64,000 nucleotides of DNA from Planoprotostelium fungivorum (lineage: Eukaryota > Evosea > Variosea > Cavosteliida > Cavosteliaceae): positions 62,001-126,000 of the forward strand of contig MDYQ01000015.1 in the NCBI GenBank assembly GCA_003024175.1, read 5' to 3'. A program made the position numbers and the translations under genes. Positions 1,383 through 63,793 of this stretch are shown piece after piece. Numbering within the stretch: position 1 is the first letter of the stretch; the number at the start of each line of letters is the position of its first letter. The notes beneath the pieces were generated by a model that was given only the letters and a program-made list of their open reading frames with translations, ran no database searches and had not been told where the DNA came from.

Positions 1383-3171
1383 TTATGGGCATGAGATGAC
1401 TCTCAGCGTGTTGGTGCCTCCAGGAACAAACTCCATCGTTCCACTGATGACGACCACGAGAGATCCGGGCTTGCACAGACCCATCACCTTTCCCTTCTCC
1501 ATGGCCAAGCCGATGAGAAACTCTGCGGCATCCTTCTGAGTGCTGACCAAGAAGGGAACGGCTCCTCTCGTTAAGAGGAGAGAATTGGCCACGTGTTCGT
1601 GATGAGTCACACAGATGACGGGGACTCTGGGTCTGTACTTGCAAGCGAGTCTGGCGGTAGCTCCTGTCTCAGATAGAGTCACCAAGAGAGAGGCTCCCAC
1701 ATCGTTTGACGCTCTCACGGCGTAAGAGGCGACGACCTGCATGGCGTCGGCGATCTACAACGAGGCATCCTCTCACCTCGGGGGTGCTGAGGTCCTCGCA
1801 GGCAGTTCTAAAGCCTTCAAAGAGGGTGGGGTAGTGTGTCGCTGCCTCTACGTTCTCAGCCTCTTTGCAGATGCCAGCCATGTAGGTGATGGCCTCCAGA
1901 GGGTAGTCACCCGAGGCCGTCTCACCGGACAGCATGACACAGTCGGTACCGTCTAAGACGGCGTTGGCGACGTCGGTGGCTTCGGCACGAGTGGGTCTGG
2001 GGTTCTGAATCATAGACTCCAGCATCTGAGTGGCCGTGATGACTGGCTTGCCGGCGGCGTTACACTTGGACACCATCATCTTCTGAGCCTGAAAAGAGTA
2101 AGAGGTGTGGAGAGGAAGAAGTAGACTTACGACAAAGATCTGTTCCATGGGTAGTTCCACACCGAGATCACCTCTGGCGACCATGATGCCATCGGACACC
2201 TTCAAGATGGAATCAAAGTTCTCGAGTCCCTCGGTGGATTCGATCTTGGATATGATCTTGATGTTTCTTCCCTCTTCTCCAAGGATCTTTCTGATCTCGA
2301 GGACGTCATATGCAGATCGGATGAAAGAGGCGGCGATCATATCGACCTCTGTCGGATGTCAATGAGAGGAAGAGAAGGACACGACCCACTCTGTTCGACT
2401 CCAAACTTGAGATCCTTGATGTCCTTCTCTGATACGGCGGGAAGATTGACCTTAGCTCCGGGAAGATGGGTGTTCTTGTTCTCTCCCAAGACAGATGTGT
2501 TGTTGACTGTGCATGTGACCGTCTTTCCGGCGGCGTTGATGGAGGTGATGGTGAGTGAAATCTGTCCGTCTGCGATGAGAATGTGACCTCCGACTTTGAC
2601 AGAGGTGCACAAGTCCTACAGTTGATGAGTTTCGTGGGTGTATGATGCATTCGTCACCTGGTAGTCGACAATGATGGTGCTGTCGTCACCAATGAGAGTC
2701 AAATCTGTGGATACGTTGATGGTCTGACCGGCTGTCAGCTTGATCGTCTTGTCCTTCAATTTTCCTGGGCAGAGTGAGAAGAGTGGAATGTGACGTTAGA
2801 GTCACCTGTTCTGATCTCTGGACCCTTCGTGTCCAGCATGATGGCACAGCGAGAGTCTCCTCCTCTCTTGGATAAAGCCTTTCTCAGATTGGCAATGACT
2901 TCACCGTGGTACTGTTCGTGAGGTCAGACAATGTGAACAAAGTGAAGGTGAGAACAGAGAAGAGGACAGTGAATAGACAGACCTCGTGGCTTCCGTGGGA
3001 GAAGTTGAGACGCATGATGTTCATTCCGGCGGACATCATCTTGTCCAACACCTCAGGACTCTTCGTCTTGGGTCCAATGGTGCAGACGATTTGAGTCATA
3101 CGGTACTTCTTGTGTGCATTCTGAGCCTCCCAGTCCACTTTGAGCTTCAGGTTTCTGTTGAGGGTTGCCAT
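1383..3171 (-). CDS. Pyruvate kinase
   Basis: Glycolytic enzyme that converts phosphoenolpyruvate and ADP to pyruvate and ATP in the cytosol. Seven exons (3171-2983, 2911-2806, 2764-2658, 2615-2390, 2348-2131, 2088-1777, 1736-1383) splice to 503 residues, the usual family length. Visible signatures are [15 protein letters not shown] and [14 protein letters not shown] near the N-terminus, the K220-type signature [21 protein letters not shown], the helix [20 protein letters not shown], and [25 protein letters not shown]. The C-terminal allosteric domain ends [12 protein letters not shown]. Introns are 35-73 nt, and the last one (40 nt) carries the CGTTGTAG word found in many introns here. The stop codon is TAA directly followed by ACATTTTTC. 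I see no broken or missing key residue. The start is chosen because the preceding frame lacks family similarity. Confidence 0.96.
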
Positions 3172-3996
3172 GTCGAGAGAAAAATTGACCTCTAAAGAAG
3201 ATGAGTGGCAGTTGATCAGAAACCGAGGATGGCTATTGTGTCTTTCTTGAGACCGATTACATATCTCGGAAACGTGACTCAGTCCGAGGATTTCGCCTCT
3301 GCGTTGTAGATGCTTCCTTAATCTCCCGGCCGGAAATTTGAAATCTAAGCGTTTCAGCTTCTCCCACGAAAAGGGATGTCTAAGCATTTCAGTGTGAAAC
3401 GCTTGGGTGTTCTTGATGTGTGATATTCATTCACAAATCAATCGATCGTATGAGCCGCTTAAGTTGGAAACGAATGAATTTGAAAGACGCTTGGCGCTTT
3501 GGATGAGACCACATCACACTGTCGCCAGTAATGGTGATAACGTGATCCTCACCCAACACAGACGCATCGTTCCTCTCTTTGCTGGCCTCTTTAAGCGTCA
3601 CGATGATGTTGGTGATGTGTCAGTCCGAGGAAACTAAAGTAGTTTCTCGTGCTCTCACCGTAAGCTCTATACAACTCTCTCTGAGTGAGAAAGGATGTAC
3701 TATAGAGGAACTCCTGGACTTCATCCTTCATCTCATGCACAAGAACCCGTTATGCAGCCGTTGTAGACGTGATTTTGGTCGCTGGATCACACGTTACATT
3801 CTCATACATCTTCCTATGGGAAGATAGAATGTGGTCCAGATTCCCGCCAAAATGAGTCGTGCTGAGATAAAGTTCACAGAAAAGTTGTTTGGCGGTTGTT
3901 GACGTGTCAATTACGGTAAACTACCGAGGACGTAATTCGAAGTGCCTCCTTGACAAATTCGTCACATATTTCACAACACACGACACGACAACCACG
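3172..3996. other. Divergent intergenic region
   Basis: About 825 bp separate the starts of pyruvate kinase (minus) and the ankyrin gene (plus), so promoters of both must lie here. Short open frames exist on both strands (for example 3407-3637 and 3579-3827 plus) but show no family signal and no convincing splice partners. No RNA gene was recognised. Confidence 0.5.
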
Positions 3997-7908: not shown

Positions 7909-10510
7909 ATGATGAGAGGTCTTCTGCTATTCGGCCTCATCATATCCGCCTGTGGCGCTCTGTTGCAGCCTGGCTATACCAGTAACATGGTCTTGCAGCG
8001 CGCTCCACAAAAGGCCATCTTGGCAGGCAAATCACTGGCCGCTGGTTCTGCCGTCATCGTCAACTTTAATGGACAGAATGGAAGCGTGTCGGTGGATGCA
8101 AGTGGAGCGTGGAACTACTCTCTTCCTGCAACATCCGCTGGAGGTCCTTATACGTGAGTAGACGCTAAAGACCTGATCCGATCTGATTTGGATGTAGCAT
8201 TACCGTCTACAGTGGCTCTTCTCAGCAGCAATTGACCGTGAGACGAAGATCTCGAAAGAATTCGCTGACATCTACAGAATGTTCTCTTTGGAGATGTCAT
8301 CTTGTGTTCTGGACAGAGCAACATGGTCTTCACCATGTCTCAGATGTTCAACAACGACACTTACTTGAACGCTGCATCCAACTATTCTGACATCAGGTAT
8401 CATCGAATCATACTCGATGAGTCGACAGAATATAATGGTGTCCAGACTTCTGAACGGGATCAACGCAAACTGGCAGATCAGCAGCAGGGCTTCTCTTCTC
8501 AGCTTTTCCGCCGTGTGAGTCTACAATTCTGTCGTTCGTCACTGAATGAAAGGCAGGTGTTATTTGTCCGCCCGTAACACGTACAATACGTCTCGCGTCC
8601 CACTGGGTCTCTTCCTTTCGGCCGTTGGAGGTACCTCTTCTCCGAAATTCATCGTCGAATTCTTTTCCATTTCATTATTTTCATACTGACGGAGTTAAGG
8701 TACTCGAATTGAACGGTGGTCACCACCTGGGACACAGAGCAACTGCTATGGATACGACATTCCTGATTACTCCTTCCTCTACAGAGATCGCATCGCGCCA
8801 TTCATACCCCAGAGGATCTCGGCCGTTATCTGGTATGGCTCATTGTAGATGATGATGGCTGATGAAGATGCTCAGGTATCAAGGAGAGGCGAATGTGAAC
8901 GCGGCCGGCGTCTACAACTGTCAGCTGGCCAATCTCGTTCGATCATGGAGAGCCAACTTTGGCTACGATGACTCTCTTCCGTGGTTCGTCGTACAGCTCG
9001 CGGGCTGGCCTGCGAACAACTATCACGCAGTAAGCAGCTTGAGACAAGCGCAGAAGAACGTGGCAGACACGATACCTAACGTGTACATCTTCACTGCGAC
9101 AGATCTGCGTGAGTGATCGCCGACGATGACCAACTCACGATGCGGTCAGATGACACGCTGTCCCCTTTTGGTAACATCCATCCCAGAAACAAAGAGCCCA
9201 TTGGACTGAGAATATCGAACGGTCTGCTCAACAAGCTCTACAACAAGAACGTCGTCTCTGCAGGTGAGATGCACAACGATGGCAGGATGTAGAATGACAG
9301 AGGGATAGGAGCATCATTCAACAAGGTCGAAAACGTGAAAAATGCAGAGATCAATACGACATCAGTGAACATCACACTGACCATCAGCTTCGTCGCTGAT
9401 CAGACAGCACAAGGTGAACGACGCGTTGTAGAGTAAATATTTATTCAGTATGTTTAGGTTTGGCCATCCGAAAGATCAACTGTTCGGACCCTGAGATCTC
9501 TGCATACTGCAGTAACCTCTTTGAGATCTCTGTACAGATCGCCGGAGCTGCAGCTGTGCCCACAAAGTGGATCGCAGTGCAGCAGTACTCGCTGCAGAAC
9601 GGCATGCTTGTGCTGTCCACTGCCATTCCTGTCAACTCTTCTTACACTGGCTGGAGGTGCGTGTCTCACTCTCTGGCGTGATATCGATGACACGCAGATA
9701 TGCATGGGAAGACATACCGCCCATGGTACTGTACAACGCAGCCAACTATCCCACGCTACCGTATCAGAGTCAAGCACCATCTCTCTTTCCATCTGACGGC
9801 TATTACACCATGGGCTGGAGAAACTACGATTACGGGTGAGACAGATATGATGTTGCCCATTGACAGCTGACGTGACGTCAGCATCGGCTATCGAAACGGA
9901 TCCGTCGTGCAAGGAGTGCAGTTGAGTCTAGTCAATCAAATCTATCCCGTGTGGCTGTTCCAGGCTGACAGCGACCACTTTGGCAGCCTCAGACACAACG
10001 TGAGATGCTTATTCACATGATGGCGAGCGACGTATCTGATGTGTACAGTCTACCGGATTGTATCTGACGACGAGTGGAGTCAACTGCTCGTTGATCTCTC
10101 TGGAACCCAAGAGCGGTCAGAACAATCAGAGGTGAGACGATGGAACACCTTCACCCTCATCGGGCACGCTCATCACCGTGACGTTCACTGCTGACTTCCA
10201 AAGATGGTTCATGATCTATTCCGGCTATGACGATCTGAGATACTCCATCTACAACTCGGTCTGTGGCTGGAAGGTTCTCAACAACAATTGCGATTACAAA
10301 CAGGACATCAATCTTATTGACGACACCAGTCCCGGCAGCTGCGCAGTATGGTCCCTTACTTTCGTCTCTCCTGCACCTCCTTCGACTACCACACAGAACA
10401 CTAATTCGGACAACGTCGTGGGCACGACAGCTCTGCCCAGTGGAAGTCACATCTTGTCCTCCTCTGCCATCTTTGTCTGTGTCGCTCTGTTTGTATCACT
10501 GTTCGGTTAG
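7909..10510 (+). CDS. Sialate O-acetylesterase-like protein, copy A
   Basis: About 660 residues from 14 exons. The N-terminal signal peptide (MMRGLLLFGLIISACGALLQ) is followed by the family start SNMVLQRAP. The SGNH/SASA hydrolase core shows the nucleophile block VILCSGQSNMVF, RIERWSPPGTQ, VIWYQGEANVN, SLPWFVVQLAGW and the late block GNIHPRNKEPIGLR with the expected catalytic His. A C-terminal Ser/Thr-rich linker and a hydrophobic tail (SSSAIFVCVALFVSLFG) are typical of a GPI-anchor signal, so the enzyme is probably held on the outer cell surface. The family removes O-acetyl groups from sialic acids; true substrate here is unknown. Start at the first of two ATGs, both next to the signal peptide. 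The stop TAG is followed at once by AACAATAAATG. Every splice junction I checked keeps the frame, so this copy looks functional. Confidence 0.9.
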
Positions 10511-10513
10511 AAC

Positions 10514-10757: not shown

Positions 10758-10809
10758 CTCATTCTCTCCTCCGCTCGATCGGATCACCTCACAGCAGCTT
10801 CGAACAGAG

Positions 10810-13293
10810 ATGATGAGAGGTCTTCTATTCCTCGCTCTCGTCTTGTCCGCCTGTGGCGCTCTGTTGCAGCCAGGATATGCCAGCAACATGGTCTTGCAGC
10901 GCGCGCCTCAGCAAGCCATCTTGGCAGGTAACGGACTGACCGCTGGCGCTGCCCTCGTCGTCAACTTTAACGGTCGAAATGGAACCGCAACGGCGAGTGC
11001 AAGTGGAGCGTGGAACTACTCTCTTCCTGCAACACCTGCCGGAGGTCCTTATAAGTGAGTCATCAACGCTTTGTAAAGATCTCTTCCGATCTGACAATGA
11101 TGCAGCATTACCGTCTATAGTGGCTCTTCTCAGCAGCAGCTGACTGTGAGTGACGCTGATGTTTCGAAAATTCTCACGGCTGCGAACAGAACGTCCTCTT
11201 TGGTGATGTCATCTTGTGTTCTGGACAGAGCAACATGGAATTCAAGATGTCTCAGATCTTCAGCAACGAAACTTACTTGAACGCTGCATCCAACTACCCT
11301 GACATCAGGTATCATCGCATCACATCCAGATGTCTTTCAATTCATTATCATACAGAGTTTTGCACAACTACAATGGAAACTGGCAGGTGAGCAGCGAGAC
11401 TGCTCTCTCCAGCTTTTCTGCCGTGTGAGTCTACAACTGTGTCGTCACTGAATGAAAGGCAGGTGTTATCTGTCCGCTCTCAACACGTACAATACGTCTC
11501 GCATCCCACTGGGACTCCTCCAGGCAACCGTTGGTGGTATGTTTTGTTCGAAAATTATCGTAGAATTGATTCTATTTTATTTTATATAGCGTTAGCATTT
11601 ACCAATGTGATCCAGGCACTCGAATCGAGCTGTGGTCGCCACCCGGAACACAGAGCAACTGCTATGGATACGATGTCCCAAGCTTTTCTTCCCTCTACAA
11701 CGCTCGCATTGCGCCATTCATACCTCAGAGGATCTCGGCCGTCATTTGGTATGGCTTGTTGTAGATGGAGATGGCTGATGAAGATGCTCAGGTATCAAGG
11801 AGAGGCGAATGTGAATGCGGCCGGCGTCTACAACTGTCAGCTGGCCAATCTCGTTCGATCATGGAGAGCCAACTTTGGCTACGATGACTCTCTTCCGTGG
11901 TTCATCGTACAGTTGGCAGGCTGGGGCTCTGGTAGCTATCGCGCATTGAGTGGTCAGAGACAAGCGCAGAAGAACGTGGCAGACACGGTACCTAACGTGT
12001 CCATCTATACTGCGGCAGATCTGCGTGAGTGATGAGACGATCGCGATGATGTTCTGCTGACGTCATCAGATGACAGGCTGTCCCCTTTTGGTAACATCCA
12101 TCCGAGGAACAAAGAGCCGATTGGACTGAGAATATCGAACGGTCTGCTCAACAAGGTCGAAAGCGTGAGGACTATCGCTAACGCGGGATCAGTGAACATC
12201 ACACTGACCATCAGCTTCGTCGCTGATCAAACAACACAAGGTGAACCAGGATGACGAGTTGTAGAAGAGAGATTTATATATTTAGGTTTGGCTATTCGAA
12301 AGATCAACTGCTCGGACCCTGAGATCTCTGCATACTGCAGTAACCTCTTTGAGATCTCTGTACAGATCGCTGGGGCTGCAGCTGTGCCCACAAAGTGGAT
12401 TGCAGTGCAGCAGTACTCGCTGCAGAACGGCATGCTTGTGCTGTCCACTGTCATTCCTGTCAACTCTTCTTACACTGGTTGGAGGTGCGTTGTCTTCTCA
12501 CTCTGGCCTGAGATTGACACATGCAGATATGCATGGGAAGACATACCGCCCATGGTCTTGTACAACGCAGCCAACTATCCCACGCTGCCATATCAGAGTC
12601 AAGCACCTTCTCTCTTTCCATCTGACGGCTATTACACCATGGAATACATCAGTTATGGATATGGGTGAAATGTCGATGACGAAGATGAACGACACTGAAT
12701 GTGACGTCAGCCTTGGTTATCGAAACGGATCCGTCGTGCAAGGAGTGCAGTTGAGTGTTGTCCCACGGATCAATCCCGTGTGGCTGTTTCAGTCTGACAG
12801 CGACCACTTTGGCAGCCTCAGACACAACGTGAGATGCTTATTCAGATGATGACCAGTGACATCTGACGTGTACAGTCTACCGGATTATATCTGACGACGA
12901 GTGGCGTCAACTGTTCGTCGGTCTCTCTGGAACCGAAGAGCGGTCAGAACAATCAGAGGTCAGTGTTCTTTGTCATGATCTTGAATTGTCTGATTCACAT
13001 GCAGATGGTTTATGATCAACACTGGACTAGACGATCTGAGATATTCCATCTACAACTCGGTTTGTGGCTGGAAGGTTCTCAACAATAACTGCAACCCCGC
13101 GCTGAACGTCAATCTCACGGTTGATACCTTCGGTGGTTGCAGTATTTGGTCGCTCAATCGCATCGCTCCCGCACCTCCTTCGACTACAACAGACAACGTC
13201 GTGGGCACTACAGCTCTGCCCAGCGGAGGTCATCTCTTGTCCTACTCTGCCATCATTGTCTGTGTCGCTCTGTTGGTGTCACTGTTCCTTTAG
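10810..13293 (+). CDS. Sialate O-acetylesterase-like protein, copy B
   Basis: Same plan as copy A: signal peptide MMRGLLFLALVLSACGALLQ, nucleophile block VILCSGQSNMEF, RIELWSPPGTQ, YQGEANVNAAG, SLPWFIVQLAGW, GNIHPRNKEPIGLR, and a hydrophobic anchor tail ending CVALLVSLFL. It lies 300 bp downstream of copy A in tandem. All junctions keep frame. One difference is structural: after NGLLNK the reading frame passes directly to VESV, so the segment LYNKN(V/L)VSAGASFNK and the intron inside it are missing. The join sits at an 8-base repeat (TCAACAAG) that flanks the lost segment in copies A and C. The hydrolase blocks are kept, so activity is possible. Stop TAG is followed by AGCAATAAATGG. Confidence 0.9.
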
Positions 13294-13384: not shown

Positions 13385-16300
13385 TTAAGTCCTAGAGTCT
13401 TCTGACGTATCGGTCTGAATGTAAATATTCTGAACGTTTGCATATTGGACCGATGTGATCTGATCATCTGTCGGATCACTCAAGATCGAACAGATCTCAT
13501 CGAAGGTGGGTCTCTCTGTGTGCTCCGTCTTCCAACAATCTACAACACGTCATCACGATGTTGCGATGATGATGCGATCTCGATCACCCGTCATGAGGTC
13601 CTTCAGATCAGTCGGTGTGCCTTCTGGTATGTTGAGTCTCTTGCCATTTCTGATGATCTCCACTGCCAAATCGATGACACTGTCTTCAGGAAAGGGATCC
13701 TCCACTGTCAAAACCTCCCACACTACAACTCCGAAGGAGAAAACTGTCATGAGGCATGAGCACTTTGATCGTGACTCATGAAGAGAGTGTCTCATCGTTA
13801 TGACTCACCATCTGATTTGGTGGAGTAGATGCGGCTCTGTATGGCCTCGGGTGCCATCCAACGGATTGGACCGATTGTAGATACGGTCACAGAGATTCCT
13901 TGGAAATCTGTGTTTTCCTGGGAACGAGATAGTCCGAAATCGGCGACCTGTCGCATATTTCAGATCGAAATGTTTTTTGAATTTGATATCTCTCGTTATC
14001 TCACCTTTGCTTCGAGATGAGAATTCAAGAGGATATTTCTGACTGCCAGATCTCTGTGGATGATCTGTACGTATAAGCTGGTTCTACAATGATGTAGATG
14101 ACGAAGAAAAAGATCATTCACTCTTTCTTTGTGGAGATGAAGCATACCGAGTGCGATTTCTCGAATGAATTTCCTCTTCTCCTCAGCGGTTGTACTTTTC
14201 TTTCTCAAGTAAGAATAGAGACTGCCCTCGCTGCAAAATTCTACCAAGAGTCAATTCAGTCGCTCACTATGGCGTCAAACGTATCATATATATGTGGTAT
14301 TCAGTAGATTAAAATAGAATAAAATCACCGGTCACGAGGCTTAGTGGTTGTGGTGGGAATGTCATCCCTTTCATTAATCAAATTCAATCTTTCACCTCGA
14401 TTTCCGACTCACCGATGAACATAACTAAGATCAGATCAGATCAAATTGAACGAAACGTAGATGACTTCACCTATGTTAGGATGGCTCTTGAGTCCTTGCA
14501 ATATGTTGACCTCGTCCACCTTCAGTCAACCACGTATAATGTCTCTCACCTCGTGTAAGAAATCTTCCAATTGTTTCTGCGTGACGTATTCCGCCCTCAC
14601 TTGTTTCACCTTCTCACTTCAATCTCTTTCCTTCTCATCATCAACTCACGGCCACCATCGTTTCTCTCCACTTTGCCCTGTAGACGATACCAAATGCACC
14701 GGAGCCGACCATTTGCATGTTCTTCAGATCATCAAATTGAATGATGGACCTCTTGATGGTGGCCGTGTTCAGCTGCGAGATGTCGACCATGGCCAATTGG
14801 TTCGTTCTCATCTTCTTCCTCAGATGTTTACGGTAAGAGATGAAGACGACGACGGCTACGATGAGCAGAACAAAGAAACCACCTAGAGTGTCATCGTGGA
14901 TGTCATACTGAGTGTCTCACAAGTGATACCGGCGATCAGACCCACCACGGAAACTCCATCCGATCGTGGAGCTGCAGCTCCACTGGATACGGATCCCACT
15001 GGATCGATGAGATTGTAACCGTACTGGTTGTACGTCGAGGGAGCGATGGACTTTAAGGTTTCCACCGTATCTTGCACCGACCCCTCGTTGTAGCCTTCGT
15101 AGTGCATCACTTGAACTGTGGCTATAATGCTACCCGATCTGTGACGTTCAGCCGCCATGATTGTACGCCTATGATACGTACCGTACGTCGGATATCTTGA
15201 TGCGGTCGACAGAGAAGTTACCGAGGGAGGACAAAGTGTGTAGGAAATGATTTGAATCGAACGTAATTACATCCCCCTCCATGTGATAAGGTAGAGATGC
15301 AATCGAATCGTTACCGATCTGCGAACATTCGCATTGACATTGACTTCGGATGCTCCACGAGATCGGACAATGCAATGGATTATCGTTCAGATGGCAGAGA
15401 ACATTTGGAGGGAGGGAAGACTGAATGGAATGTCAATGGAAGAGGTAAGATAGAATAAGAATGCAAACCTCTCTGGCATAAGATAAGAGATTGTTAGACA
15501 AATCGATGGTAGATAGATCACTCAATCCTCTCAAGGAGGGGATTGAACCGTTAAAATTGTTGAAACTGTCTCGCATGAAATAGAGAGAATGGATGGAATT
15601 CACCTCAAATTCAGATATTGTAACGATGTGAAGTCGGTCATGTCTTGTAATTGTCCACTCAATCCATTGTGTGACTATCTCTCTTCAATTCTGAGACACG
15701 AAACAGTCGATTCTCACCAGATCTACCAATTGAAGATTCTTCGTGGCTTCTGGCAGGAGAAATTGTCCGGTGAATAGATTATCGTTGATGCAGAGAGAAA
15801 CTACGGCTGATAGTTCTGACACGAATGTTAAATCCCCTGACAGTCGATTGTGACTGATGTTCAGGATCTACAGATGGAGTGAGATGTGAATCGTACGTAT
15901 CGTTCGTATCACCTTCACATCTCCGCGAAATTTCGAGGATTCTCCACTCAATCGATTGTTTCCCTGAAATTTCTCTCAGTTTTCGTCGGCAAAAATATCT
16001 CACCAGATCGAGGGTCTCCAGATTGGGTAAGTTGAATATGACATCAGGTATGATATCATACAGATCATTATCAGATGCCAACAATTCTTCTATGCTCGAA
16101 GCTGTCCACTATCAGAAAGATTTTGCTATGCAACTCACCCAACTGAGTGGGCAGTGTGGCTGAGATGCTATTGCGTGATAAATCGACCATCTGCAGAGAT
16201 GTCATCTGCGATAGAAAATTGAGGGATTCAGCCATCAATCGATTATCGTTGAGAGTCAACGTGGTCAATTGTGTGAGTGATCCCATCTCATGCGGAATTT

Positions 16301-52566: not shown

Positions 52567-55500
52567 TTACACGGTTTCCAATGGAACGTTATTACCCAAC
52601 AACGCATCTCTGTCATCGCGCGACACCTTTCGGTAGACATCCATGTTCTCTCCTTGCTTTCTCAGCCATTCACTGCCCGCTGTTGCTCTCTCAGTCTCGT
52701 CACAAACTACGACGTGATCACCTTTCAGTGGATTCGAAGAAGAAGGTTTCTTGATGTTGTGAATGTCTGGTTTCTTGTATCGCTTGAGGAGAAGAGAAGA
52801 GACGACGACAGACACGGACGAGAAGGCCATGGCGAAACCGGCAAGCATGGGAGGGATCTGTCGGTGTCTTAGATCATCTTCTCTCCATCACGTTGCATTT
52901 GGATTGATTCAATGGATGACATCCATCGTGAGAAGAATAAACGAAGAATAAAACGAAGAATAAAACGAAGAATAAAACGAAGAATAAAACGAAGAATAAA
53001 ACGAAGAATAAAACGAAGAATAAAACGAAGCTTCACCTCAATGTGCCAAGGAACGAGGACTCCCGCAGCGAGTGGTATACCCAACACATTGTAGATGATT
53101 GCCCACAGATAATTCATCTGGATCTTTCTGAAAGTCTTCCTCGACAAGTCCACGGCCACCACAACGTCCCTCAGGTCACTCTTCACCAGAATCATCCCCG
53201 CCGCCTCCATGGCCACATCCTATTCGTTCACGTCAGACTACAACGATGTAGACGGACCCACCGTGCCCGCTCCGATGGCGATACCGACGTCTGCTTCTGC
53301 GAGTGCCACGCTATCGTTGATACCATCACCCACCATGGCGGTGATGTAGCCTCTGTCTTTCAGTTCTTTGATCTTCTTCGCCTTCTGAGAGGGAAGGACT
53401 TCTGCAAAGACGTTCGTGATGCCCAACTGTGATTACGTTCAGTCGTGCGATTCACTTGTCTCGTGTGGTTGATGTAGTTGAATGATGATAGTCAACGATC
53501 ATTTGAATCGGGTACAGAATGATGAAGAAGGTGTGCGGTGAACAAAAGAGTACGGGGAGATGATGAAAAGTGTAGATGAGCGATGAGAAGAGGAATTTGA
53601 GAGGATCACCTGAGCTGCGATGGCATTGGCTGTCGATCGATTATCTCCCGTGATCATCCACGTCTCGATGCCCAAAATGCGAAGGGCAGAAATGGTCGCC
53701 TTCGCCTCTGGTTTCACCGTATCGGCCGCAGCGAAAAATCCCGCAAATCTACCGTCGAACGAAGCGAGTGAGACTGTCCTCCCTTGTCTCTCTTGTGTCA
53801 TGATGGCTTCTTCCACGTCTGATTCAATGGAAACGTTATTCGAGATGAGGAATTTCCTGCTGCCGACCATGACCCTCACACCCTTGATCTACAACGAGTC
53901 AACTTGGAATTGTCATCGAATTTCCACCTTGCATGTGATACCCTCTCCCGGCTTAACCACGAATTCTTCCGGTTCGGAGAATTTGACGGAGAAATATTCC
54001 GTGGCGTATTTCACTGCGGACTTTGCGATCGGATGTTCCGAGGCTCGTTCCGCGGAAGCTACTTGCTCCCAAAATAGCTTCTCCACCGACCGTTGACCAC
54101 CGTTGACCACGAACGAATCTACAACGCTCGGTTTTCCACTGGTGAGTGTACCGGTCTTATCGAACGCGATGGCCGTGACACGGTAGGCGGTCTCGAGTAC
54201 GGCTCCACCCTTGATGAGTACGCCTGGGGTGGTGTGAGTACGTAGGTTACGTCGGAGGATTTACCCAGGGAAGCTCCGACACCTGTTCCGACCATGATGG
54301 CCGTCGGTGTGGCGAGACCTAAGGCACAGGGACAAGCGATGACTACAACGGAGATACAGAAGCGAAGGGCCAACAGCCACCGGTTCAACTTCCCTTCTCC
54401 CTCTGTAATCGACGTCGGTATTTTGGCGGGAAAATTTTGGCGGGAAATCACCTGCAGAGTGCTCGAACATGGTGGGGACACCGTAGGCGTGGAGTATGAT
54501 GACCCAGACGAAGAAAGTGGCGAGGGATAGAACGATGACTGAGGGTACAAAGACACCCGCGACCTGTGAGACTGATCAGACTCGTTGTAGATGGAGTATC
54601 ACCTTGTCGGCTAAGTTTTGAATGGGAGCTTTATCCGTCTGAGCTTCTTGTACCAAGCGAATGATCTGTGACAGTCCAGTATCCTTCCCCACCTACATCA
54701 CGTCACGAAAATTTCCACGAAATTTCTCCGCTGACTCACCTTGGTTGCCTTCATGTGGATGAGACCGGATAAGTTGATGGTTCCTCCGATGAGTTGATCT
54801 CCCGGCGACTTGGATACAGGCAGCGATTCTCCGGTGATCATGGATTCATCCAAGCTGGAATCGCCTGACACGACCACACCATCCGTAGGTACCTGTCAGA
54901 TATCAACATCGAAATCTCATCGAGTTTTCACGAGATGGAGTCCGAGGAGAGATGAATGGAAATAAAATGAAATAAAATAGTCACTTTGGATCCGGGAATC
55001 ACTTTGAGGTGATCGCCACGTTGAATGAGATCGATGTCCATGTTCTTCTCCTCTACAACCTGCCCGTTGTCGTCCAAGACGAGGAGCTAGAAGAAGATGA
55101 GTCAACGAGACTGACTGACGATCGATCACCGTGGCAATGGAGGGTTGTAGAACCATCAATTTCTGAATGGCTTCTGAGGTTCTGCCCTTGGCTAGGGTCT
55201 CAAAGTATTTTCCCAGAATGATGAACGTGATCAACGTGGCAGACGTTTCGAAAAACACCATGGCTGTAGATAATTAGAACCTCATCACGATGATCGTCTG
55301 TTTCATGATCTGATCATCAAGACGATCGTTTTTCTGATCATCACTTTTGCTTCGTGATGATCATCACGATCGTTTTCATGAATGTGAGGTTCAACTCATA
55401 GATTCAACTCACCGTGATTCATCGGGTCAAATATGTTGAGAAAAATCGCCAAGACCGAATACAAGTAAGCTGCCGTCGTACCCAGTACTACCAAGACATC

Positions 55501-56555
55501 CATGTTTCCTCCACCGTGTTTCAAAGACTTGTACGCTCCGATGTAAAATCTCTTGCCGATGTGAAACTGTACACGTCACGAAATATTCATTCTACAACGA
55601 GCCACACCTGCACCGGAGTAGTGAGAGCCCACAACAGGCAGTGGCTGAGTGGTAGACCCTCTACGAACGGATTCCACATGAGAATGCGATCGAGAGAACG
55701 GATCTCCATGAAGACCATGCCGATGAGAAAGACGGGGACGGAGAACATGAGAGACAGATGGAGTTGACCTTTGAGGTATTCTAACTCTTCGGTTCGGTTG
55801 AGAGAATCGTTCGTGGGTTCTTGTGCGAGGGAGGCAGTGAAGCCGACCTGATGGGAGTGAGATGATGTGTAGGGAGGATGATATCACATCTTCGATGGCG
55901 GAGATGATGCTGCGGGGACCGGTAAGGTCGGAATCGTATAGAACCTTAGCGCTATAGATGATTAGACGATTAGACGATGGAGGATTTGAGTTGGATGATA
56001 GGATGCTCAGTGGATGGTAGAGAGAAGATATTCACCTGTTCGTCGTGAGATTGACGGATATCTCTTTAACTCCCGTGTGAGATCCTACAACGTTCTCTAT
56101 GATAGATACACAAGATGCACAAGTCATTCCACCGATGGAAAGGTTCACAACATCTCCTTTCGTCTGTTTCTGTGTCAATGCAAGAGAAAGGATAGGTGTG
56201 ATGGAAAATGATGTTTGTGATGTGTTTTACGCCAATAAACGTGATCTCCCACCTGTTCGAGAATTTTGGCCTGAAAACCGACGTCTTCTATTGCTTCTCT
56301 TACTTTCTCTTCCTAATTAGCAATGTCAGCAGATCAATTTCATCAGAGAAGGAGGAGAAAGGTTCTATCTACCTCGGTAATATTGTAGTCGTAATAGACC
56401 TCTGCTTTCTCAGAGAGGAGGGCAACAGACACAGATATGACTCCATCTTGGCACCCGACATAGTTCTCTATCGTCGCAACACAAGCTCCACACGTCATAC
56501 CTCCTACGCTGAGCACTACCTTGCGGCGATCCACTGTCGCCGGCGGTCCTATCAT
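52567..56555 (-). CDS. Copper-transporting P-type ATPase (P1B-1)
   Basis: Exports Cu(I) using ATP, usually into the secretory pathway or out of the cell. Two N-terminal metal-binding domains carry GMTCGAC and a GMTC(A)SC-type site. The transmembrane core has the entry motif [19 protein letters not shown] with CPC, a dephosphorylation loop with [11 protein letters not shown], the phosphorylation site [12 protein letters not shown], the nucleotide-domain [17 protein letters not shown] and [20 protein letters not shown]. Then come [17 protein letters not shown] and [18 protein letters not shown], which supply the YN and MxxSS copper residues. The C-terminal tail is basic then acidic, about 60 residues. 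Start at 56555 ([12 protein letters not shown]) lies directly before the first metal-binding domain. An upstream ATG leads into a stop. The intron before the last exon holds a 12-bp minisatellite. Confidence 0.94.
52934..53031. repeat. 12-bp minisatellite in a copper ATPase intron
   Basis: Eight tandem units of AGAATAAAACGA, the first one base shorter, lie within an intron of the copper ATPase. Because 12 is a multiple of three it stays open in all frames and yields false peptides (RFIL or KRRI repeats). AATAAA occurs in every unit but reads on the plus strand, antisense to the gene. Confidence 0.9.
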
Positions 56556-57062: not shown

Positions 57063-59706
57063 CTAAATGAACACCGATGTGAACAGAAAGGCATATACCA
57101 ATGCGGCAGAGAAGGACAACAGACTTCCTCTGTTGGGAATAGCAGCTGTGCTCACAGTGTCATTATGTGACGAAGTCCAGGCAGTGCTCTGTGTCGATCG
57201 GCTAGTTGTAGTGGAAGGAGGTGCTGGCTCGATCAAGCTGAGTGACCATACACCACAGGCTGTAGGACCTGAGGTGCTCACATCGACGAGGGTGATGTTA
57301 TTGTTGAAATTACAGTAATTCGTGATGACCTTCCAGCCACAGACCGAGTTGTAGATGGAGTACCTCAGGTCATCGTATCCGGAATATATCATGGTCCATC
57401 TGAAGAGGTCAGAAAGGCGTTCGTGATCGATGATGATGATGATGTCGATGATGAAGGTGCGCGTGACATCTCACCTCTGATCGGGCTGACCACTCTGGGC
57501 TTGTAGAGAAATTAACGAGCAGTTGTCGCTCACTGTCAGATAGAGTCCGGTCGACTGTAGACGTCAGAAGTGTCACACGATGCCCATACACGTTGTGTCT
57601 GAGGGTACCAAAGTGGTCGCTGTCCGATTGATAGAGCCATACCGGGTATATGTTATTCACGATGCTCAACGGTACTCCCTCTACAACGGGTCCGTTCTTG
57701 TAGCCAATTCTGCAAGTCGAATCAGCCGTCGTTCCTCATCGTGATACGAATCTCACCCGTAATTATACTGGATGTAACCTATGGTGTAATAGCCATCAGA
57801 TGGAAAGAGAGAAGGTGCTTGACTCTGATACGGCAGCGTGGGATAGTTGGCTGCGTTGTACAACACCATGGGCGGTATGTCTTCCCATGCATATCTGCGT
57901 GTCATCGATATCACGCCAGAGAGTGAGATGAGACACGCACCTCCAGCCAGTGTAAGATGAGTTGACAGGAATGACAGTGGACAGCACAAGCATGCCGTTC
58001 TGCAGCGAGTACTGCTGCACTGCGATCCACTTTGTGGGCACAGCTGCAGCCCCGGCGATCTGCACAGAGACTTCGAAGAGGTTGTTGCAATAACCCAAGA
58101 CTTCGGGATCAGAACAGTTGACTTGTCGAATAGATAAGCCTGAACGAGCGGATGAGTGGTGGAATACAACGTGCCTCATCTGCTGATCATTCACCTTGTG
58201 CTGTCTGATCAGCTACGAAGCTGATAGTCAGTGTGATGTTCGATGATGTTGTATTCATCGCCACAGTCTTCACACTCTCCAATTTGTTGAACGATGCTCC
58301 TGTTCTCTGTCATTCTACAACCTGCCATCACATTGCATCTCACCTGCAGAGACGAGATTCTTGTTGTAGAGCTTGTTGAGCAGACCGTTCGATATTCTCA
58401 ATCCAACAGGGACTTTGTTTCTCGGATGAATTCTACCTGCAGGGGCTTGCATGTCATCTGATGATGTTCATCAGATCACCGACATCATATGGGAAGGATT
58501 CTCACTCACGCAGATCTGTTGCAGTGTAGATAGACACGTTAGGTACCGTGTCCGCCACGTTCTTCTGTGCTTCTCTCAAGCTGCTTACTCCGTGGTAATT
58601 ACCCGCAGGCCAGCCCGCAAGCTGTACGATGAACCACGGAAGCGAGCTGTCGTTGTATCCAAAGTTGGCTCTCCACGATTGAATGAGATTCTTCAGTTGA
58701 CAATTGTAGATACCCGCCGAATTGAAATTGGCTTCTCCTTGATACCTGAGAGGACGTCATCATCCTTCTATAATGAGTCGTACCATATGACGGCTGATAT
58801 TCTCTGAGGTAAGAAGGGTGCTATATGTCCGTTGTAGAGGGAGGCGTAAGCAGGAACATCGTAACCATAGCAGTTGCCCTGTGTTCCAGGTGGCGACCAC
58901 AGTTCGATTTGAGTTCCTGAAGAGGCATGAGTATTTAAATACGAATAAATTTGATAAAAAATGTGAGACGTACCACCGACGGCCGTGAAGAAGAGGCCCA
59001 GGGGAATACGAGACGTATTGTACGTGAACAGAGCAGACAGATAACATCTGTGGCTTCATTAAGCGACGAGTTGAAGTGTGAGACTTACACCGCTGAGAAA
59101 CCGGACAAAGCGGATGGGCTATTGATATTCCAGCCGCCAGAATACTCTTTCAGAAGTCTACTCCGATTTAGTTTCTTCTAATGAGCAAGGATGTGTAAGG
59201 AGATACCTGATATCTGTATAGTTGGAGGCCGTGCTCAAGTAGGTCCCGCTGTCGAAGATGTTCGACATTGTGAATTGCATGTTGCTCTGTCCGGAACACA
59301 AGATGACATCACCAAAGAGGACATTCTGTTGGTGTGTCAGGAATGAGCAGCGATGAGAGCGCCACTCACGGTTAGCTGTTGCTGAGACGAGCCACTATAG
59401 ACCTTGATGCTAGCGAATTGAACATCGGTCACAATCGATCGGCACTGCAATAAGATCTCACGTGTAAGGGCCACCAGCTGATGTTGCAGGAAGAGAGTAG
59501 TTCCACGCACCGGTTGCATCGGCCGTAGCGGTTCCATTTCGTCCATTGAAGTTGACAATAACAGCCGCACTTCCATTGAGTCCATTACCCGCCAAGATGG
59601 CTTGCTGAGGAGCACGCTGCAAGACCATGTTATTAGTATACCCGCTCTGAAGGAGAGCACCCCAGACGGACAGGACAAATGAGATCAACAGAAGACTTCT
59701 CATCAT
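57063..59706 (-). CDS. Sialate O-acetylesterase-like protein, copy E
   Basis: Intact minus-strand member. The signal peptide is MMRSLLLISFVLSVWGALLQ, followed by TNNMVLQRAP, FGDVILCSGQSNMQF, QIELWSPPGTQGNCYGYDVP, YQGEANFNSAG, SLPWFIVQLAGWPAG and IHPRNKVPVGLRISN. The Ser/Thr linker and hydrophobic tail LSFSAALVYAFLFTSVFI suggest a GPI anchor. One intron (before LLKEYSGGWN) needs the acceptor GGAGTAG rather than a later AG to keep frame; copy A uses the matching phase. It groups with copy G: both have NCSDPEVLGYCNNLFEVSVQ where A, B and C have NCSDPEISAYCSNLFEISVQ. Yet the next ~115 bases are almost identical in all copies, which looks like gene conversion. Confidence 0.88.
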
Positions 59707-59855: not shown

Positions 59856-60742
59856 TGCAGAGCTGTGGTGCCCACGACGTTGTCTGAACTGGTGCTCAGC
59901 GTGGTGGTTGTAGTCGAGGCAGTGACACGATGAGGTTGAGCGACCAGATACCGCAGGTGCTGAGTGATCGTGATACCGTGAGAGTGATGTTCAGCGCGGG
60001 GTTGCAGTTGTTGAGTAACTTCCAGCTACAGACCGAGTTGTAGATAAAGTATCTCAGATCGTCTAATCCACCATCTGTATGTAAATCAGAGGAGATGAAA
60101 AGGAGAAGCATTGGGTGCAAAGACAAATCTCCCTCCTCGATTGGGCCACTATCAACTCGCTGGTCGCTACCGCCGACTGTCTCCGTAAGAATTTTGAATT
60201 TCTAATTTCCCGCCACCTCTTGTGAAAACACTACGTCACAACAAATTTGACCACTCGGGGCATGCCAACCAGAGGAATAGCCTGCCAACTGTACGATGAA
60301 CCACGGAAGAGAGTCATTGTAGCCAAAGTTGGCTCTCCAAGATCGAACTAGATTAGCCAGCAGACAGTTGTAGACGCCAGCAGCAAGCACATTCGATTCT
60401 CCTTGGTACCTGATCATCTTCATCAGCCTTCTTGATCTACAACGAGCCATAACAGATTGCGGTCGAGATCCTCTGGGGCATGTATGGAGCAATGCGAGTA
60501 TTGTAGAGGGAAGAATAGTCCGGAACATCGTATCCATAGCAGTTGCTCTGTATTCCGGGTGGCAACCACAGTTCGACCCGAGTACCTGAATCACGTTAAT
60601 GCACCGACGACACGAAGAATAAAATCTCAGTCCATTACCTGCCAAGATGGCCTGCTGAGGAGCTCGCTGCAAGACCATGTTGCTGCAGCACAGCGCCACA
60701 GATGGACAAGATAAGAGTCAGAGATAGAAGACCTCTCACCAT
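59856..60742 (-). pseudogene. Broken, chimeric esterase copy F
   Basis: The start MVRGLLSLTLILSICGA is family-like, but about 14 bases are missing before the SNMVLQRAP block, which shifts frame. The region from NGL to the intron before the RVELWLPPGIQ-type exon is deleted. The exon with YQGESNVLAAGVYNC survives up to SSGWHAPSGQ. It is followed by a junction to a permease-gene fragment, then by the last esterase exon (DDLRYFIYNSVCSWKLL), and the copy stops before the anchor tail (GTTAL). By promoter and wording (CNPALNITLTV) it belongs with copies B and C, although it lies between E and G. It cannot encode a working enzyme. Confidence 0.85.
60110..60217 (-). pseudogene. Permease-gene fragment inside esterase F
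   Basis: The piece reads GGTGGCGGGAAATTAG, then ACAG|TCGGCGGTAGCGACC and, further on, GTGGCCCAATCGAGGAG and TTTGTCTTTGCACCCAA. It matches 7169-7275 (plus) over its whole length and the FtsX-type permease gene (23640-23560, minus) over about 75 bp, including an intron and the exon start (SAGATGG there, SAVATSE here). Confidence 0.7.
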
Positions 60743-60824
60743 CTCTGTGCGATGATGCTGTGTGCTTTGATTGTTGAAAAGAGAATGAGGGTTGTTCCAC
60801 CCGATCTTCGTCAACAACGTCTTG

Positions 60825-60908: not shown

Positions 60909-61036
60909 GCGATGTTGGATCTATGGTCTGTGCTGGAACGTGTGCACCCCCAGAAGATCTTTTTGATACTCACGAGGATATCCAGCACTCACGAGGTGAA
61001 ATCGATCTCACAGCAGTAATGTCATCCATTTATTAT

Positions 61037-63793
61037 CTAAACTACTATCGACGCGAGGAGTAGGGTACAGAGCAAAACGCCAGAGAAGGACAAGAGGGGT
61101 CCTCTGTTGACATCTGAAATACTAGATACGGTACCCTGCAAGATACTCTGTGTGTCGCTCTGTACTGCATTTTGTGTCACGTTTTGTGTCACGTTCAGTG
61201 CGACGCTCAGATCGATGCTCTGCACACTCTGAGTGGAAATACGAGTGGTCCCCTGGACAGTAGTAGAACGACTGGTTGTGGTTGATAGAGGTGCAGATGC
61301 GATGAAAGTGAGAGACCACGCAGTGCAGGAGCCAGGTGAGACGTCGTCATCCAAAGTGATGTTCAACTTGTAGTTACAGTTGCTGTTGAGAACCTTCCAG
61401 CCACAGACAGAGCTGTATATGGAGTATCTCAGATCTTCGAATCCGGTGTAAATCATGAGCCATCTGATTGACGTTCAGATTGTGTGGCGTTCGTGATGAT
61501 GGTGATGAGATCAGTATTTATAATTGTTGGAGAAATTTGAGATGATGGTGATGCGATGATGACGAAAAGGAGGAAAAGGATGACCTTTGATTCGGCGAGC
61601 TCTTCTTTGCCTCTAAGAAAACCATCGAACAATCGTTGTTTGTAGCCAAATAGAGTCCGGTCGACTGTGTTCGTCAGAATTCCGTGCGTTGTACATGTTT
61701 CACGTTGTGCTTAAGGGAGCCGAAGTGGTCGCTGTCAGCCTGGAACAGCCACACGGGATAGATCTGTTTGACAATGCTCAATTGTACTCCCTCTACAACG
61801 GGTCCGTCTCTGTACCCTATCCTAAACTTGAGTCAGATATCACTTGACATTGCAATTTGTATTTCACCCGTAATCGTAGTTGATATTATTCATAGTGTAA
61901 TAACCGTCGGAAAGATAAAGAGAAGGTGCTTGACTCTGATACGGTAGCGTGGGATAGTTGGCTGCGTTGTACAACACCATGGGCGGTATGTCTTCCCATG
62001 CATATCTGTATGTGTCAATCGCAGGCCAGAGAGTGAGATGACAACGCACCTCCAGCCAGTGTAAGATGAGTTGACAGGAATGACAGTGGACAGCACAAGC
62101 ATGCCGTTCTGCAGCGAGTACTGCTGCACTGCGATCCACTTTGTGGGCACAGCTGCAGCCCCGGCGATCTGCACAGAGACTTCGAAGAGGTTGTTGCAAT
62201 AACCCAAGACTTCGGGATCAGAACAGTTGACTTGTCGAATGGTTAAACCTGGAAGACGTAAATTGTTTGTCTGTAATAACCGATCATTATTCACCTTGTG
62301 CTGTCTGATCAGCTACGAAGCTGATAGTCAGTGTGATGTTCACTGATGTCGTATTCATCGTAGCAGTCTTCACACTTTCAACCTTATTGAATGACGCTCC
62401 TATCCCTCTGTCATTCTACAACTTGCCATCACATTGCATCTCACCTGCAGAGACGAGGTTCTTGTTGTAGAGCTTGTTGAGCAGACCGTTTGATATTCTT
62501 AGTCCAATGGGGGCTTTGTTTCTTGGATGAATTGGGCCATTTGGAGAAAGCCTGTCATCTAGCAAAAATAAGTTCAAGATGACGATCCATCATACACTCA
62601 CGCAGATCTGTCGCAGTGTAGATGGACACGTTAGGTACCGTGTCTGCCACGTTCTTCTGTGCTTGTCTCAAGCTGCTGACTCCATGAATGTTGTTAGCAG
62701 GCCAGCCCGCAAGCTGTATGACGAACCAAGGGAGAGAATCATTATAGCCGAAGTTTGCTCTCCAGGACCGCACGAGATTAGCCAGCTGGCAGTTGTATAT
62801 CCCGGCGGCGTTAAAATTAGCTTCTCCTTGGTACCTACGTCGACGATATCATCATTTTGGTCAATTTACAACGAGTCATACCAGATGACGGCCGAGATCC
62901 TCTGGGGTATGAAAGGTGCCACACGAGCGTTGTAGAGAGACGCATAATCAGGAATATCGTATCCGTGGCAGTTGCTCTGTGTGCCAGGCGGTGACCACAG
63001 TTCAATGCGAGTACCTGAATAACGTTTATACTTTGATGTACGTCGATACGTAGAATCATCGATACGTACCTCCCACGGAAGTTTGGAAGAGGCCCAGGGG
63101 AACGCGAGACGTATTGTACGTAAATAAGGCAGACAGGTAACACCTGTACGTCCATCAGTGACAAGAGAAAGAGTTGTAGACTCACACGGCGGAGAATCGA
63201 TAGAGAGAGGCCTTACTGCTCACCTGCCAGCTGTTGGTGACTTCGTTCATAACTCTGAACCCGATTCAGTTGCTGTTTTTCGATAGATATCGTTGTCATG
63301 CTTTCTATTCACACCTGATGTCTGGATAAAAGGAGGAGGCATCCAGATAGGTGTCGTTACCGAAGATCTGAGTCAATGTGTAGACCATATTACTTTGACC
63401 GGAACACATGATGACATCGCCAAAGAGGACATTCTGTTAAGATCAGCTCATCGGTCATATGAATGTCTCACGTTAAGCTGTTGTCGAGAAGAACCACTCG
63501 TGACGACGATGCTGCTCTTTCTAAGATTTATAACGTGCGGAGTGGACTCACATGTATGGACCGCCCGCCGGTGTTGCTGGAAGAGAGTAGTTCCACGCTC
63601 CAATTGCATCGGCCGTAGCGGTTCCGTTCTGCCCGTTGAAGTTGATGACAACGCTGACACCGGCGGTCAGTCCATTACCTGCCAAGATGGCCTGCTGAGG
63701 AGCTCGCTGCAAGACCATGTTGCTGGTATAGCCTGGCTGCAGCAGAGCGCCACAGGCGGATAAGACGAGAGTGAGCAACAGAAGACTCCTCAT
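61037..63793 (-). CDS. Sialate O-acetylesterase-like protein, copy G
   Basis: Intact minus-strand member. Signal peptide MRSLLLLTLVLSACGALLQ, then GYTSNMVLQRAP, FGDVIMCSGQSNMVY, RIELWSPPGTQSNCHGYDIP, YQGEANFNAAG, SLPWFVIQLAGWPAN, IHPRNKAPIGLRISN, and a long linker with NVTQNVTQNAVQSDTQS (a short internal repeat with potential N-glycosylation sites). The tail LLSFSGVLLCTLLLASIVV fits a GPI-anchor signal. All junctions that I followed keep frame. The stop TAG is followed by ATAATAAATGG. It is closest to copy E in the middle exons. Start chosen at the single ATG directly before the signal peptide. Confidence 0.9.

What the first reader, a model, noticed from the sequence alone, without database searches (positions are those of the whole stretch)
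1755..63200. An intron-borne word, CTACAACG / CGTTGTAG, recurs in unrelated genes
An 8-base word is expected about twice in 64 kb on both strands. I count more than 40 instances, nearly all inside introns of pyruvate kinase, the permease, both LRR kinases, the ABC and copper transporters, the RCC1 gene and the esterases. Many extend to TCTACAACGAG(T/C)C or CATCTACAACG. The word usually lies about 5-25 nt from a splice site and can be in either orientation. It helped me find introns that open frames hid (e.g. 29616-29651). It could be a splicing or nuclear-protein signal, or the scar of an intron-creating element (introner).
Basis: partly seen in the sequence, partly recalled or inferred. Interest (0 to 1): 0.82.

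Follow-up and report, generated by a model that had tools for sequence, protein, structure and literature searches.

The report
Strictly spaced palindrome inside genes
A short DNA word that a reader noticed in introns is half of a strictly spaced palindrome found about 1,800 times in the genome of an unidentified eukaryote, mostly inside genes in the part I could examine, and it looks more like a protein-binding site on DNA than like a scar of intron birth.

Summary
The word is real: CTACAACG/CGTTGTAG occurs 53 times in the window (1.2 expected) and 14,371 times in the 36.9-Mb assembly (2,122 for the reversed word). My own gene models for 314 kb (no RNA-seq) give 1.88 per kb in introns, 0.26 in exons and 0.17 between genes. 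In the window 32 of 53 are intronic, not 'nearly all'.

It is half of a dyad with exactly four bases between arms: TCTACA-N4-TGTAGA 1,800 times, N3 4 times, N5 2 times. It occurs in both orientations, in exons beyond synonymous-codon expectation, and across 3' splice sites into exons. It is scarce in the first 500 bp of genes and about five-fold thinner in one 140-kb domain. Two other strict palindromes, GAAATTTC and TGACGTCA, behave alike.

Introner predictions failed: no target duplications, no decayed second arm, word turnover inside old introns. Its overlap with 3' splice sites is explained by its TAG.

Best reading: a DNA-level site for a dimeric DNA-binding protein acting in gene bodies. 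Protein, function and organism are unknown. Cyanobacterial HIP1 is the closest analogue.

The parts
1755..1762 (+). word, pyruvate kinase intron
3302..3309 (-). word, between predicted genes
3759..3766 (-). word, between predicted genes
9424..9431 (-). word, esterase intron
11695..11702 (+). word in esterase exon (codes LYN)
14083..14098 (.). dyad TCTACA-N4-TGTAGA, LRR kinase intron
15086..15093 (-). word in LRR kinase exon
17838..17845 (+). word, LRR kinase intron
21346..21361 (.). perfect dyad with ACGT spacer (words 21347+ and 21353-), permease intron
21451..21458 (+). word forming a predicted 3' splice site, permease intron
22272..22299 (.). two inverted words 12 nt apart in one permease intron (22272 forms the predicted 3' splice site)
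23229..23244 (.). dyad TCTACA-N4-TGTAGA, permease intron
23869..23876 (+). word forming a predicted 3' splice site, permease intron
24732..24739 (+). word, between predicted genes
26615..26622 (-). word in RCC1-gene exon
26944..26959 (.). dyad (word 26945+), RCC1-gene intron
27192..27199 (-). word, RCC1-gene intron
27414..27421 (-). word, RCC1-gene intron
28118..28125 (-). word forming a predicted 3' splice site, RCC1-gene intron
28443..28458 (.). dyad inside a predicted exon (word 28450-)
29622..29629 (+). word in predicted exon; possibly a hidden 3n intron
30332..30339 (+). word, RCC1-gene intron
30367..30374 (-). word in predicted exon, inverted to 30332
32101..32108 (-). word, between predicted genes
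33319..33326 (+). word in esterase exon (codes LYN)
33381..33388 (-). word, esterase intron VI^WYQGE, compared in paralogs
36162..36177 (.). dyad (word 36169-), ABC transporter intron
36863..36878 (.). dyad (word 36870-), ABC transporter intron
39398..39413 (.). dyad TCTACA-N4-TGTAGA, LRR kinase intron
40120..40127 (+). word, LRR kinase intron
40811..40818 (+). word forming a predicted 3' splice site, LRR kinase intron
41122..41129 (+). word forming a predicted 3' splice site, LRR kinase intron
41572..41579 (+). word, LRR kinase intron
41660..41675 (.). dyad (word 41667-), LRR kinase intron
42320..42335 (.). dyad (word 42327-), LRR kinase intron
43056..43063 (+). word, LRR kinase intron
45542..45549 (+). 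word in exon
45618..45625 (-). word in exon
45861..45868 (-). word, intron
49064..49079 (.). perfect dyad (words 49065+ and 49071-), intron
49691..49698 (+). word, intron
53238..53245 (+). word in a CTACA-N4-TGTAG palindrome, P-type ATPase intron
53889..53896 (+). word forming a predicted 3' splice site, P-type ATPase intron
54119..54126 (+). word in P-type ATPase exon
54343..54350 (+). word in P-type ATPase exon (codes ISVVVIACP)
54583..54590 (-). word, P-type ATPase intron
55592..55599 (+). word, P-type ATPase intron
56085..56092 (+). word in P-type ATPase exon; the only window word in the first 500 bp of a gene model
57681..57688 (+). word in esterase exon
58830..58837 (-). word in esterase exon (codes LYN)
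60437..60444 (+). word in an esterase fragment, same intron as 33381
61793..61800 (+). word in esterase exon
62928..62935 (-). word in esterase exon (codes LYN)

Best explanation
CTACAACG is one half of a DNA dyad site, ATCTACA-WCGW-TGTAGAT, that a homodimeric DNA-binding protein reads on double-stranded DNA inside gene bodies. A second common form keeps one full half (CGTTGTAGATGGA) next to a shorter GRCT half, as a heterodimer or asymmetric site would. Shown: the fixed 4-bp spacing, both orientations, the coding copies above synonymous expectation, the scarcity in the first 500 bp of genes, the domain pattern, and the same pattern for two other strict dyads. Inferred: that a protein binds it, and that the site serves gene-body chromatin or represses internal transcription start, which would explain why gene 5' ends lack it. 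Introns look preferred over exons because coding sequence rarely has room for it.
For: Spacing: TCTACA-N4-TGTAGA 1,800 genome-wide against 4 for N3 and 2 for N5; in 314 kb, 29 at gap 4 and at most 1 at any other gap up to 40 in that arrangement. A plain RNA hairpin would be expected to tolerate several loop lengths. Orientation: both occur in introns (31 sense; 41 antisense apart from the 27 at 3' splice sites) and both are in excess in exons: CGTTGTAG 15 against 0.8 and CTACAACG 31 against 10.0 in synonymous shuffles of 171 kb of coding sequence. Orientations mix within genes as by chance (12 genes with both, permutation mean 11.9). The site runs over the splice junction: the exon starts with AT after 78% of 27 word-ended introns, 16% of 879 others. 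Gene 5' ends, in the word-rich regions: 1 word in 23.5 kb of exon within 500 bp of the start codon against 40 in 79.0 kb further in (Poisson 9e-5); 2 in 7.1 kb of intron against 87 in 25.7 kb (1e-8). The intron difference holds in the window alone and in C1 beyond 140 kb alone, the exon one too. Domain: beyond 500 bp, introns have 55 words in 14.2 kb for C1>140 kb and 10 in 14.1 kb for C1<140 kb, with broadly similar codon usage and donor sites. Companion dyads GAAATTTC and TGACGTCA show strict spacing and the same two gradients.
Against: Sites for a DNA-binding protein would usually be sought between genes, where density is low (14 in 82.7 kb); the gene-body restriction is described, not explained. 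Words favour short introns: 79 words in 381 introns of up to 55 nt against 8 in 107 longer ones (Fisher 0.001 if each word is taken as one intron), which a pure DNA model does not predict. Half-site forms outnumber dyads: 106 CGTTGTAGA without an upstream CTACA against 29 TCTACA-N4-TGTAGA in 314 kb. Asymmetric spacers lean to one strand in introns (ACGA 6, TCGT 2; few). By an intron-against-rest test another word, CATCATCA, ranks above this one (z 35.4 against 26.2). The 500-bp and 140-kb limits were chosen after seeing the data. Genome-wide counts include some duplicated stretches (L060 and L064 show the same intron and flanks). No binding protein, no chromatin data, no RNA-seq, no second species.
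Confidence: 0.5

Rival explanations
1. A highly iterated palindrome kept up by a biased mutation, repair or conversion process (as proposed for cyanobacterial HIP1, or as recalled for bacterial uptake sequences), with little or no function of its own.
For: Very high copy number, coding copies through synonymous codons, several specific palindromes at once, domain dependence. A HIP1 paper argues that such excess can be a by-product of mismatch repair, though it also favours selection for HIP1 itself (PMC4390886, passages).
Against: Loss by change of the CG is visible in paralogs (5 of the 6 altered copies of one intron's motif); GAAATTTC has no CpG; a drive does not obviously predict scarcity in the first 500 bp of genes.
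Confidence: 0.18
2. An RNA signal in pre-mRNA: a hairpin or single-stranded motif that helps splicing of the roughly 40-nt introns.
For: Introns are 11 times denser than DNA between genes; short introns are preferred; word-bearing introns fold 1.55 kcal/mol below their shuffles (78 introns) against 0.24 for 788 others; antisense form 68 against 31.
Against: Exonic copies, both orientations, exact 4-nt spacing, domain dependence although donor sites are alike. Use at the 3' splice site is 11-fold per register while TAG alone predicts about 24-fold. Fewer than a tenth of introns carry it (86 of 1,003).
Confidence: 0.15
3. Scar of an introner: a small element with inverted ends CATCTACAACG...CGTTGTAGATG that created introns.
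For: 71 genome-wide places with inverted words up to 25 nt apart; in 28 of the 40 that I fetched, the second word forms the predicted 3' splice site.
Against: No target-site duplication in those 28 (best of 384 offset and length choices P 0.02); word-ended introns show no decayed second arm (mean best match 6.0 against 6.0; length-matched 5.96 against 5.81); shared sequence fades within about 13 nt of the word. Intron positions with words are shared with paralogs in 6 of 11 cases, against 95 of 142. A rough independence estimate of mine gives about 145 introns with both orientations, so 71 is no clear excess.
Confidence: 0.07
4. Artefact of composition or of the gene models.
For: All intron calls are from a self-trained gene finder without RNA-seq.
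Against: The genome-wide counts need no gene models. Spliced models give strong Pfam matches in 6 of 6 proteins tried, and introns fall at matching places in five esterase paralogs.
Confidence: 0.04

Closest known systems
HIP1, highly iterated palindrome of cyanobacteria (GCGATCGC)
   Same: Short palindrome far above expectation genome-wide; biased production or selection both discussed (start of abstract in the listing, passages of PMC4390886).
   Different: Prokaryotic, contiguous 8-mer discussed with DNA methyltransferases; here a spaced dyad in a eukaryote, densest in introns and scarce at gene 5' ends. No methylation data here.
Transcription-factor dyads: CRE TGACGTCA, heat-shock-type GAAnnTTC (recalled)
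   Same: Strict inverted half-sites; one companion word equals the textbook CRE and the other fits GAAnnTTC.
   Different: Textbook sites act mostly near promoters; these are densest in gene bodies. I could match no known factor to TCTACA-N4-TGTAGA.
Introners (Gozashti et al. 2022, PMC9860276; passages seen)
   Same: Intron-associated; inverted ends in some places.
   Different: No target duplications, no shared full-length intron sequence, word turns over inside old introns.
DNA uptake sequences of Neisseria and Haemophilus (recalled)
   Same: Very frequent short word, both orientations, often in inverted pairs, also in coding DNA.
   Different: No uptake process known here; gene-body and domain pattern.

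Membership tests
Introner | copies share sequence along the whole intron | tested here: not met
   aligned copies lose information within about 13 nt of the word; no all-against-all intron comparison was run
Introner | target-site duplication or terminal inverted repeats (each seen in part of the families in PMC9860276) | tested here: not met
   28 two-arm introns: no duplication beyond shuffled pairing; word-ended introns lack a decayed arm
Introner | word-bearing introns are recent gains | tested here: inconclusive
   6 of 11 shared with paralogs against 95 of 142; no sister species available
Dimeric DNA-binding site | inverted half-sites at a fixed spacing | tested here: met
   N4 1,800; N3 4; N5 2
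Dimeric DNA-binding site | independent of transcribed strand | tested here: met
   introns 31 sense and 68 antisense, 27 of the latter in the 3' splice-site register; both orientations in excess in exons; mixing in genes as by chance. The balance of whole-assembly strands does not bear on this.
Dimeric DNA-binding site | a protein binds the duplex | not testable with these tools
   needs gel shift, DAP-seq or ChIP
Highly iterated palindrome (HIP-like) | palindrome strongly above expectation genome-wide, coding included | tested here: met
   genome-wide; coding in 171 kb
Highly iterated palindrome (HIP-like) | linked to a DNA methyltransferase | not tested
   no methylation data
Splicing enhancer or RNA hairpin | acts in one RNA orientation at set places in introns | tested here: not met
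   both orientations, exons too; 3' splice-site use explained by TAG

The most novel reading that the evidence does not exclude
A eukaryote has written thousands of strict palindromes of at least three unrelated sequences into the bodies of its genes, synonymously in exons and freely in short introns, while thinning them out between genes, in the first 500 bp of genes and in whole chromosomal domains: a sequence-coded gene-body mark read by dimeric DNA-binding proteins.
Probability: 0.3. Interest if true: 0.85.

Novelty: new variant of a known kind. Interest (0 to 1): 0.62.

Why it matters
Gene-body chromatin is usually thought to be laid down by the passing polymerase, not by DNA sequence. 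If these dyads mark gene bodies, a compact eukaryote codes that mark largely in its introns. It would also give a eukaryotic case of a highly iterated palindrome, in which selection and biased mutation can be told apart because introns, exons, gene 5' ends and word-poor domains serve as internal controls. And it warns that a word recurring in introns need not be a splicing signal or an introner.

Tried and rejected
Introner with inverted ends: looked good at first (two-arm introns ending in the word), dropped after the TSD, second-arm and paralog tests. RNA hairpin: folding energies are lower in word introns, but exact spacing, both orientations and exonic copies speak against it. Special 3' splice site: dropped after the register test. 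Pairing between introns of one gene: orientations mix as by chance. Hidden introns as the source of exonic words: 3 of 46 exonic words score above the 99th percentile of random exonic places, so most look coding. A foreign or hybrid origin of C1<140 kb: codon usage and splice sites are broadly the same, so not favoured. Gene-level traits: word density goes with CDS length, exon number, GC3 and coding CpG; no cause found. General excess of palindromes in introns: only a few specific ones are enriched. Literature: searches for the word with 'intron', for ACAACGTTGT, for over-represented palindromic motifs with introns in unicellular organisms, and for gene-body palindromes in protists gave nothing relevant in their listings; this is no proof that nothing is in print. 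Rfam gathering search of the window: 0 matches. The organism was not identified; the 18S locus (L034) looked opisthokont-like only from recall.


Full report
WHAT WAS CHECKED. CTACAACG/CGTTGTAG occurs 53 times in the window against a mean of 1.20 in 100 dinucleotide shuffles. It is the most over-represented 8-mer in the window plus 250 kb of contig C1 (160 against 4.5 expected from dinucleotides). In the whole assembly (36,859,091 bases, 471 contigs) it occurs 7,188 + 7,183 times; the same letters read backwards occur 1,037 + 1,085 times. The window is about twice as rich as the assembly average. Some stretches appear more than once in the assembly (L060 and L064 show the same intron and flanks), so counts are somewhat inflated.

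GENE MODELS. I wrote a self-training gene finder whose coding, intron and background models are too short (order 2) to learn an 8-mer. A first run merged genes and was discarded. On 314 kb the second gives 1,003 introns in models scoring at least 10, median 43 nt in the trained set, with GTGAGT-like donors and, in about a third of introns, a YTGAY branch site; where present it typically ends 8-11 nt before the 3' splice site. Spliced pieces of six window genes match Pfam: pyruvate kinase, protein tyrosine and serine/threonine kinase, E1-E2 ATPase, sialic-acid acetylesterase, ABC transporter, RCC1. Introns of five esterase paralogs fall at matching places.

WHERE THE WORD IS. Introns 99 (1.88 per kb), exons 47 (0.26), between genes 14 (0.17). 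Shuffled introns give 0.36 sense and 0.46 antisense words against 31 and 68. In the window: 32 intronic, 16 exonic, 5 between genes; there exons and DNA between genes are equally dense (0.41 and 0.44 per kb). In coding sequence (171 kb) shuffled only among synonymous codons, CGTTGTAG occurs 15 times against 0.8 and CTACAACG 31 against 10.0; CGTTGTAG is the most enriched 8-mer by that test. Leaving out the six words at two homologous esterase sites would leave 13 and 27. So the word is not purely intronic. Ranked by introns against the rest, CATCATCA is ahead of it.

WHAT IT IS. Aligned copies show a core CGTTGTAGATGGA that fades within about 13 nt. Many copies also carry the mirror half: TCTACA-N4-TGTAGA. 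In 314 kb, 29 pairs of half-sites have a gap of 4 (25 in introns, 2 in exons, 2 between genes, by a nearly identical pattern), and no other gap or arrangement up to 40 exceeds 3. Genome-wide the counts are 1,800 for a gap of 4, 4 for 3 and 2 for 5; backward controls 7, 13 and 12. Other gaps were not counted genome-wide. Spacers are mostly ACGT, also ACGA, TCGT and others. Single-half forms often have GACT or GGCT in place of the second half (24 of 106).

WHERE IN GENES. In the word-rich regions (window and C1 beyond 140 kb) the introns within 500 bp of the start codon hold 2 words in 7.1 kb; those further in 87 in 25.7 kb. Exons: 1 in 23.5 kb against 40 in 79.0 kb. Each region alone shows this: window introns 0 in 2.0 kb against 32 in 11.9 kb; C1>140 kb 2 in 4.8 against 55 in 14.2. 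The 400 bp upstream of genes, where not covered by another model, hold 8 words in 18.8 kb, and the 400 bp downstream 2 in 13.8 kb. C1<140 kb is poorer: 10 intronic words in 14.1 kb beyond 500 bp, and none of the 42 listed C1 dyads lies before 144 kb. Donors are alike there and codon usage is broadly similar, with some shifts such as GAA 0.34 against 0.43; median introns are 41 and 44 nt, and AGAAGAG-type words are commoner there (361 and 642 introns). CpG observed/expected in introns is 0.80 against 0.96, averaged over genes. Both limits, 500 bp and 140 kb, were set after looking. Patchiness is not confined to C1: the 50 within-contig gaps among the first 100 of 262 places of a 15-base version include 16 under 10 kb, against about 7% expected; contig ends and duplicated stretches bias this test towards short gaps.

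COMPANIONS. GAAATTTC (5,048 genome-wide; reversed control 272) and TGACGTCA also have strict spacing in introns (GAAA/TTTC: 30 at gap 0, at most 2 at each gap of 1-8; TGAC/GTCA: 37 and at most 2). Both are low in the first 500 bp and in C1<140 kb and favour short introns. CATCATC, another intron word, does not follow the domain pattern. Both exceed synonymous shuffles in exons (20 against a mean of 5.2; 13 against 5.4, with a largest shuffle value of 12). TCACGTGA is only about twofold enriched. That TGACGTCA is a CRE and GAAATTTC fits a heat-shock-type GAAnnTTC is recalled, not tested.

SPLICING. 27 of 68 antisense words end exactly at the predicted 3' splice site, and none of the 68 ends 1-13 nt before it. 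Introns end in TAG about 24 times more often than TAG occurs in intron bodies (0.186 against 0.0079), while the word is 11 times more frequent in that register than in an average inner one. The overlap therefore needs no splicing role. The two exon bases after these introns are AT in 78% (16% otherwise), as expected if the site simply lies across the junction. Against this DNA-only reading, words favour short introns even per intron (79 in 381 against 8 in 107), and word introns fold 1.55 kcal/mol below shuffles (78 introns) against 0.24 for 788 others.

INTRON BIRTH. Genome-wide 71 places have inverted words up to 25 nt apart. The answer listed 50 of them; I fetched 40 (one more lies in the window, nine one-base-loop palindromes were left out). 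In 28 of the 40 the second word is the predicted 3' splice site. No target duplication stands out from shuffled pairing (best of 384 choices P 0.02) and word-ended introns carry no decayed first arm. Word introns with a comparable paralog are shared in 6 of 11 cases, others in 95 of 142; the sample is small. In the esterase intron VI^WYQGE, nine paralogs carry the motif: three intact, five changed at the CG (one of them elsewhere too) and one changed elsewhere; two more distant ones show none in the fetched stretch. Its motif columns look better conserved than the columns after them, in an ungapped alignment anchored at the donor, which favours that result. In one kinase intron shared by two paralogs the word sits at the 3' end in one and as a degenerate mid-intron palindrome in the other. 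The word turns over by substitution inside old introns.

MECHANISM. Shown: an abundant, strictly spaced DNA palindrome, in both orientations, tolerated in exons through synonymous codons, densest in gene bodies and in certain domains. Inferred: that a dimeric protein binds it. Most likely role, at low confidence: gene-body chromatin or silencing of internal starts. I give 0.5 to the DNA-level dyad reading as a whole and would give about 0.2 to that particular role.

NOVELTY. The nearest kind I could find is HIP1, where both selection and a mismatch-repair by-product have been argued (PMC4390886; listing and passages). Introners were compared with passages of PMC9860276. Four searches listed no earlier description.

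Noticed in passing
7912-13293, 32450-35050, 57063-63793: Five full-length and one fragmentary sialic-acid acetylesterase paralogs with matching introns, useful for tracing intron words.
   Followed up: partly
15927-54719 (19 GAAATTTC), 9873-42902 (12 TGACGTCA): Two further strict palindromes with the same gene-body and domain pattern as the word (one search gives the places).
   Followed up: partly
contig C1 0-140 kb (L009-L022): A 140-kb domain poor in all three palindromes, with lower CpG observed/expected and broadly the same codon usage.
   Followed up: partly
introns longer than 55 nt, window and C1>140 kb: CATCATC/GATGATG is densest in the longer introns and avoids word-bearing introns (2 of 76 against 85 of 412).
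   Followed up: partly
13385-19615 and 38745-44127: LRR receptor kinases whose catalytic loop HRDLAxRN looks like that of tyrosine kinases (recalled motif); the second one's kinase domain matches PF07714.
   Followed up: partly
52941-53060: Short tandem repeat (AAACGAAGAATAAA-type) inside a predicted 179-nt intron of the P-type ATPase gene.
   Followed up: no
C1:122437-124573 and C1:198877-201492: Two gene models with the same first 70 residues, a likely recent duplication about 76 kb apart.
   Followed up: no
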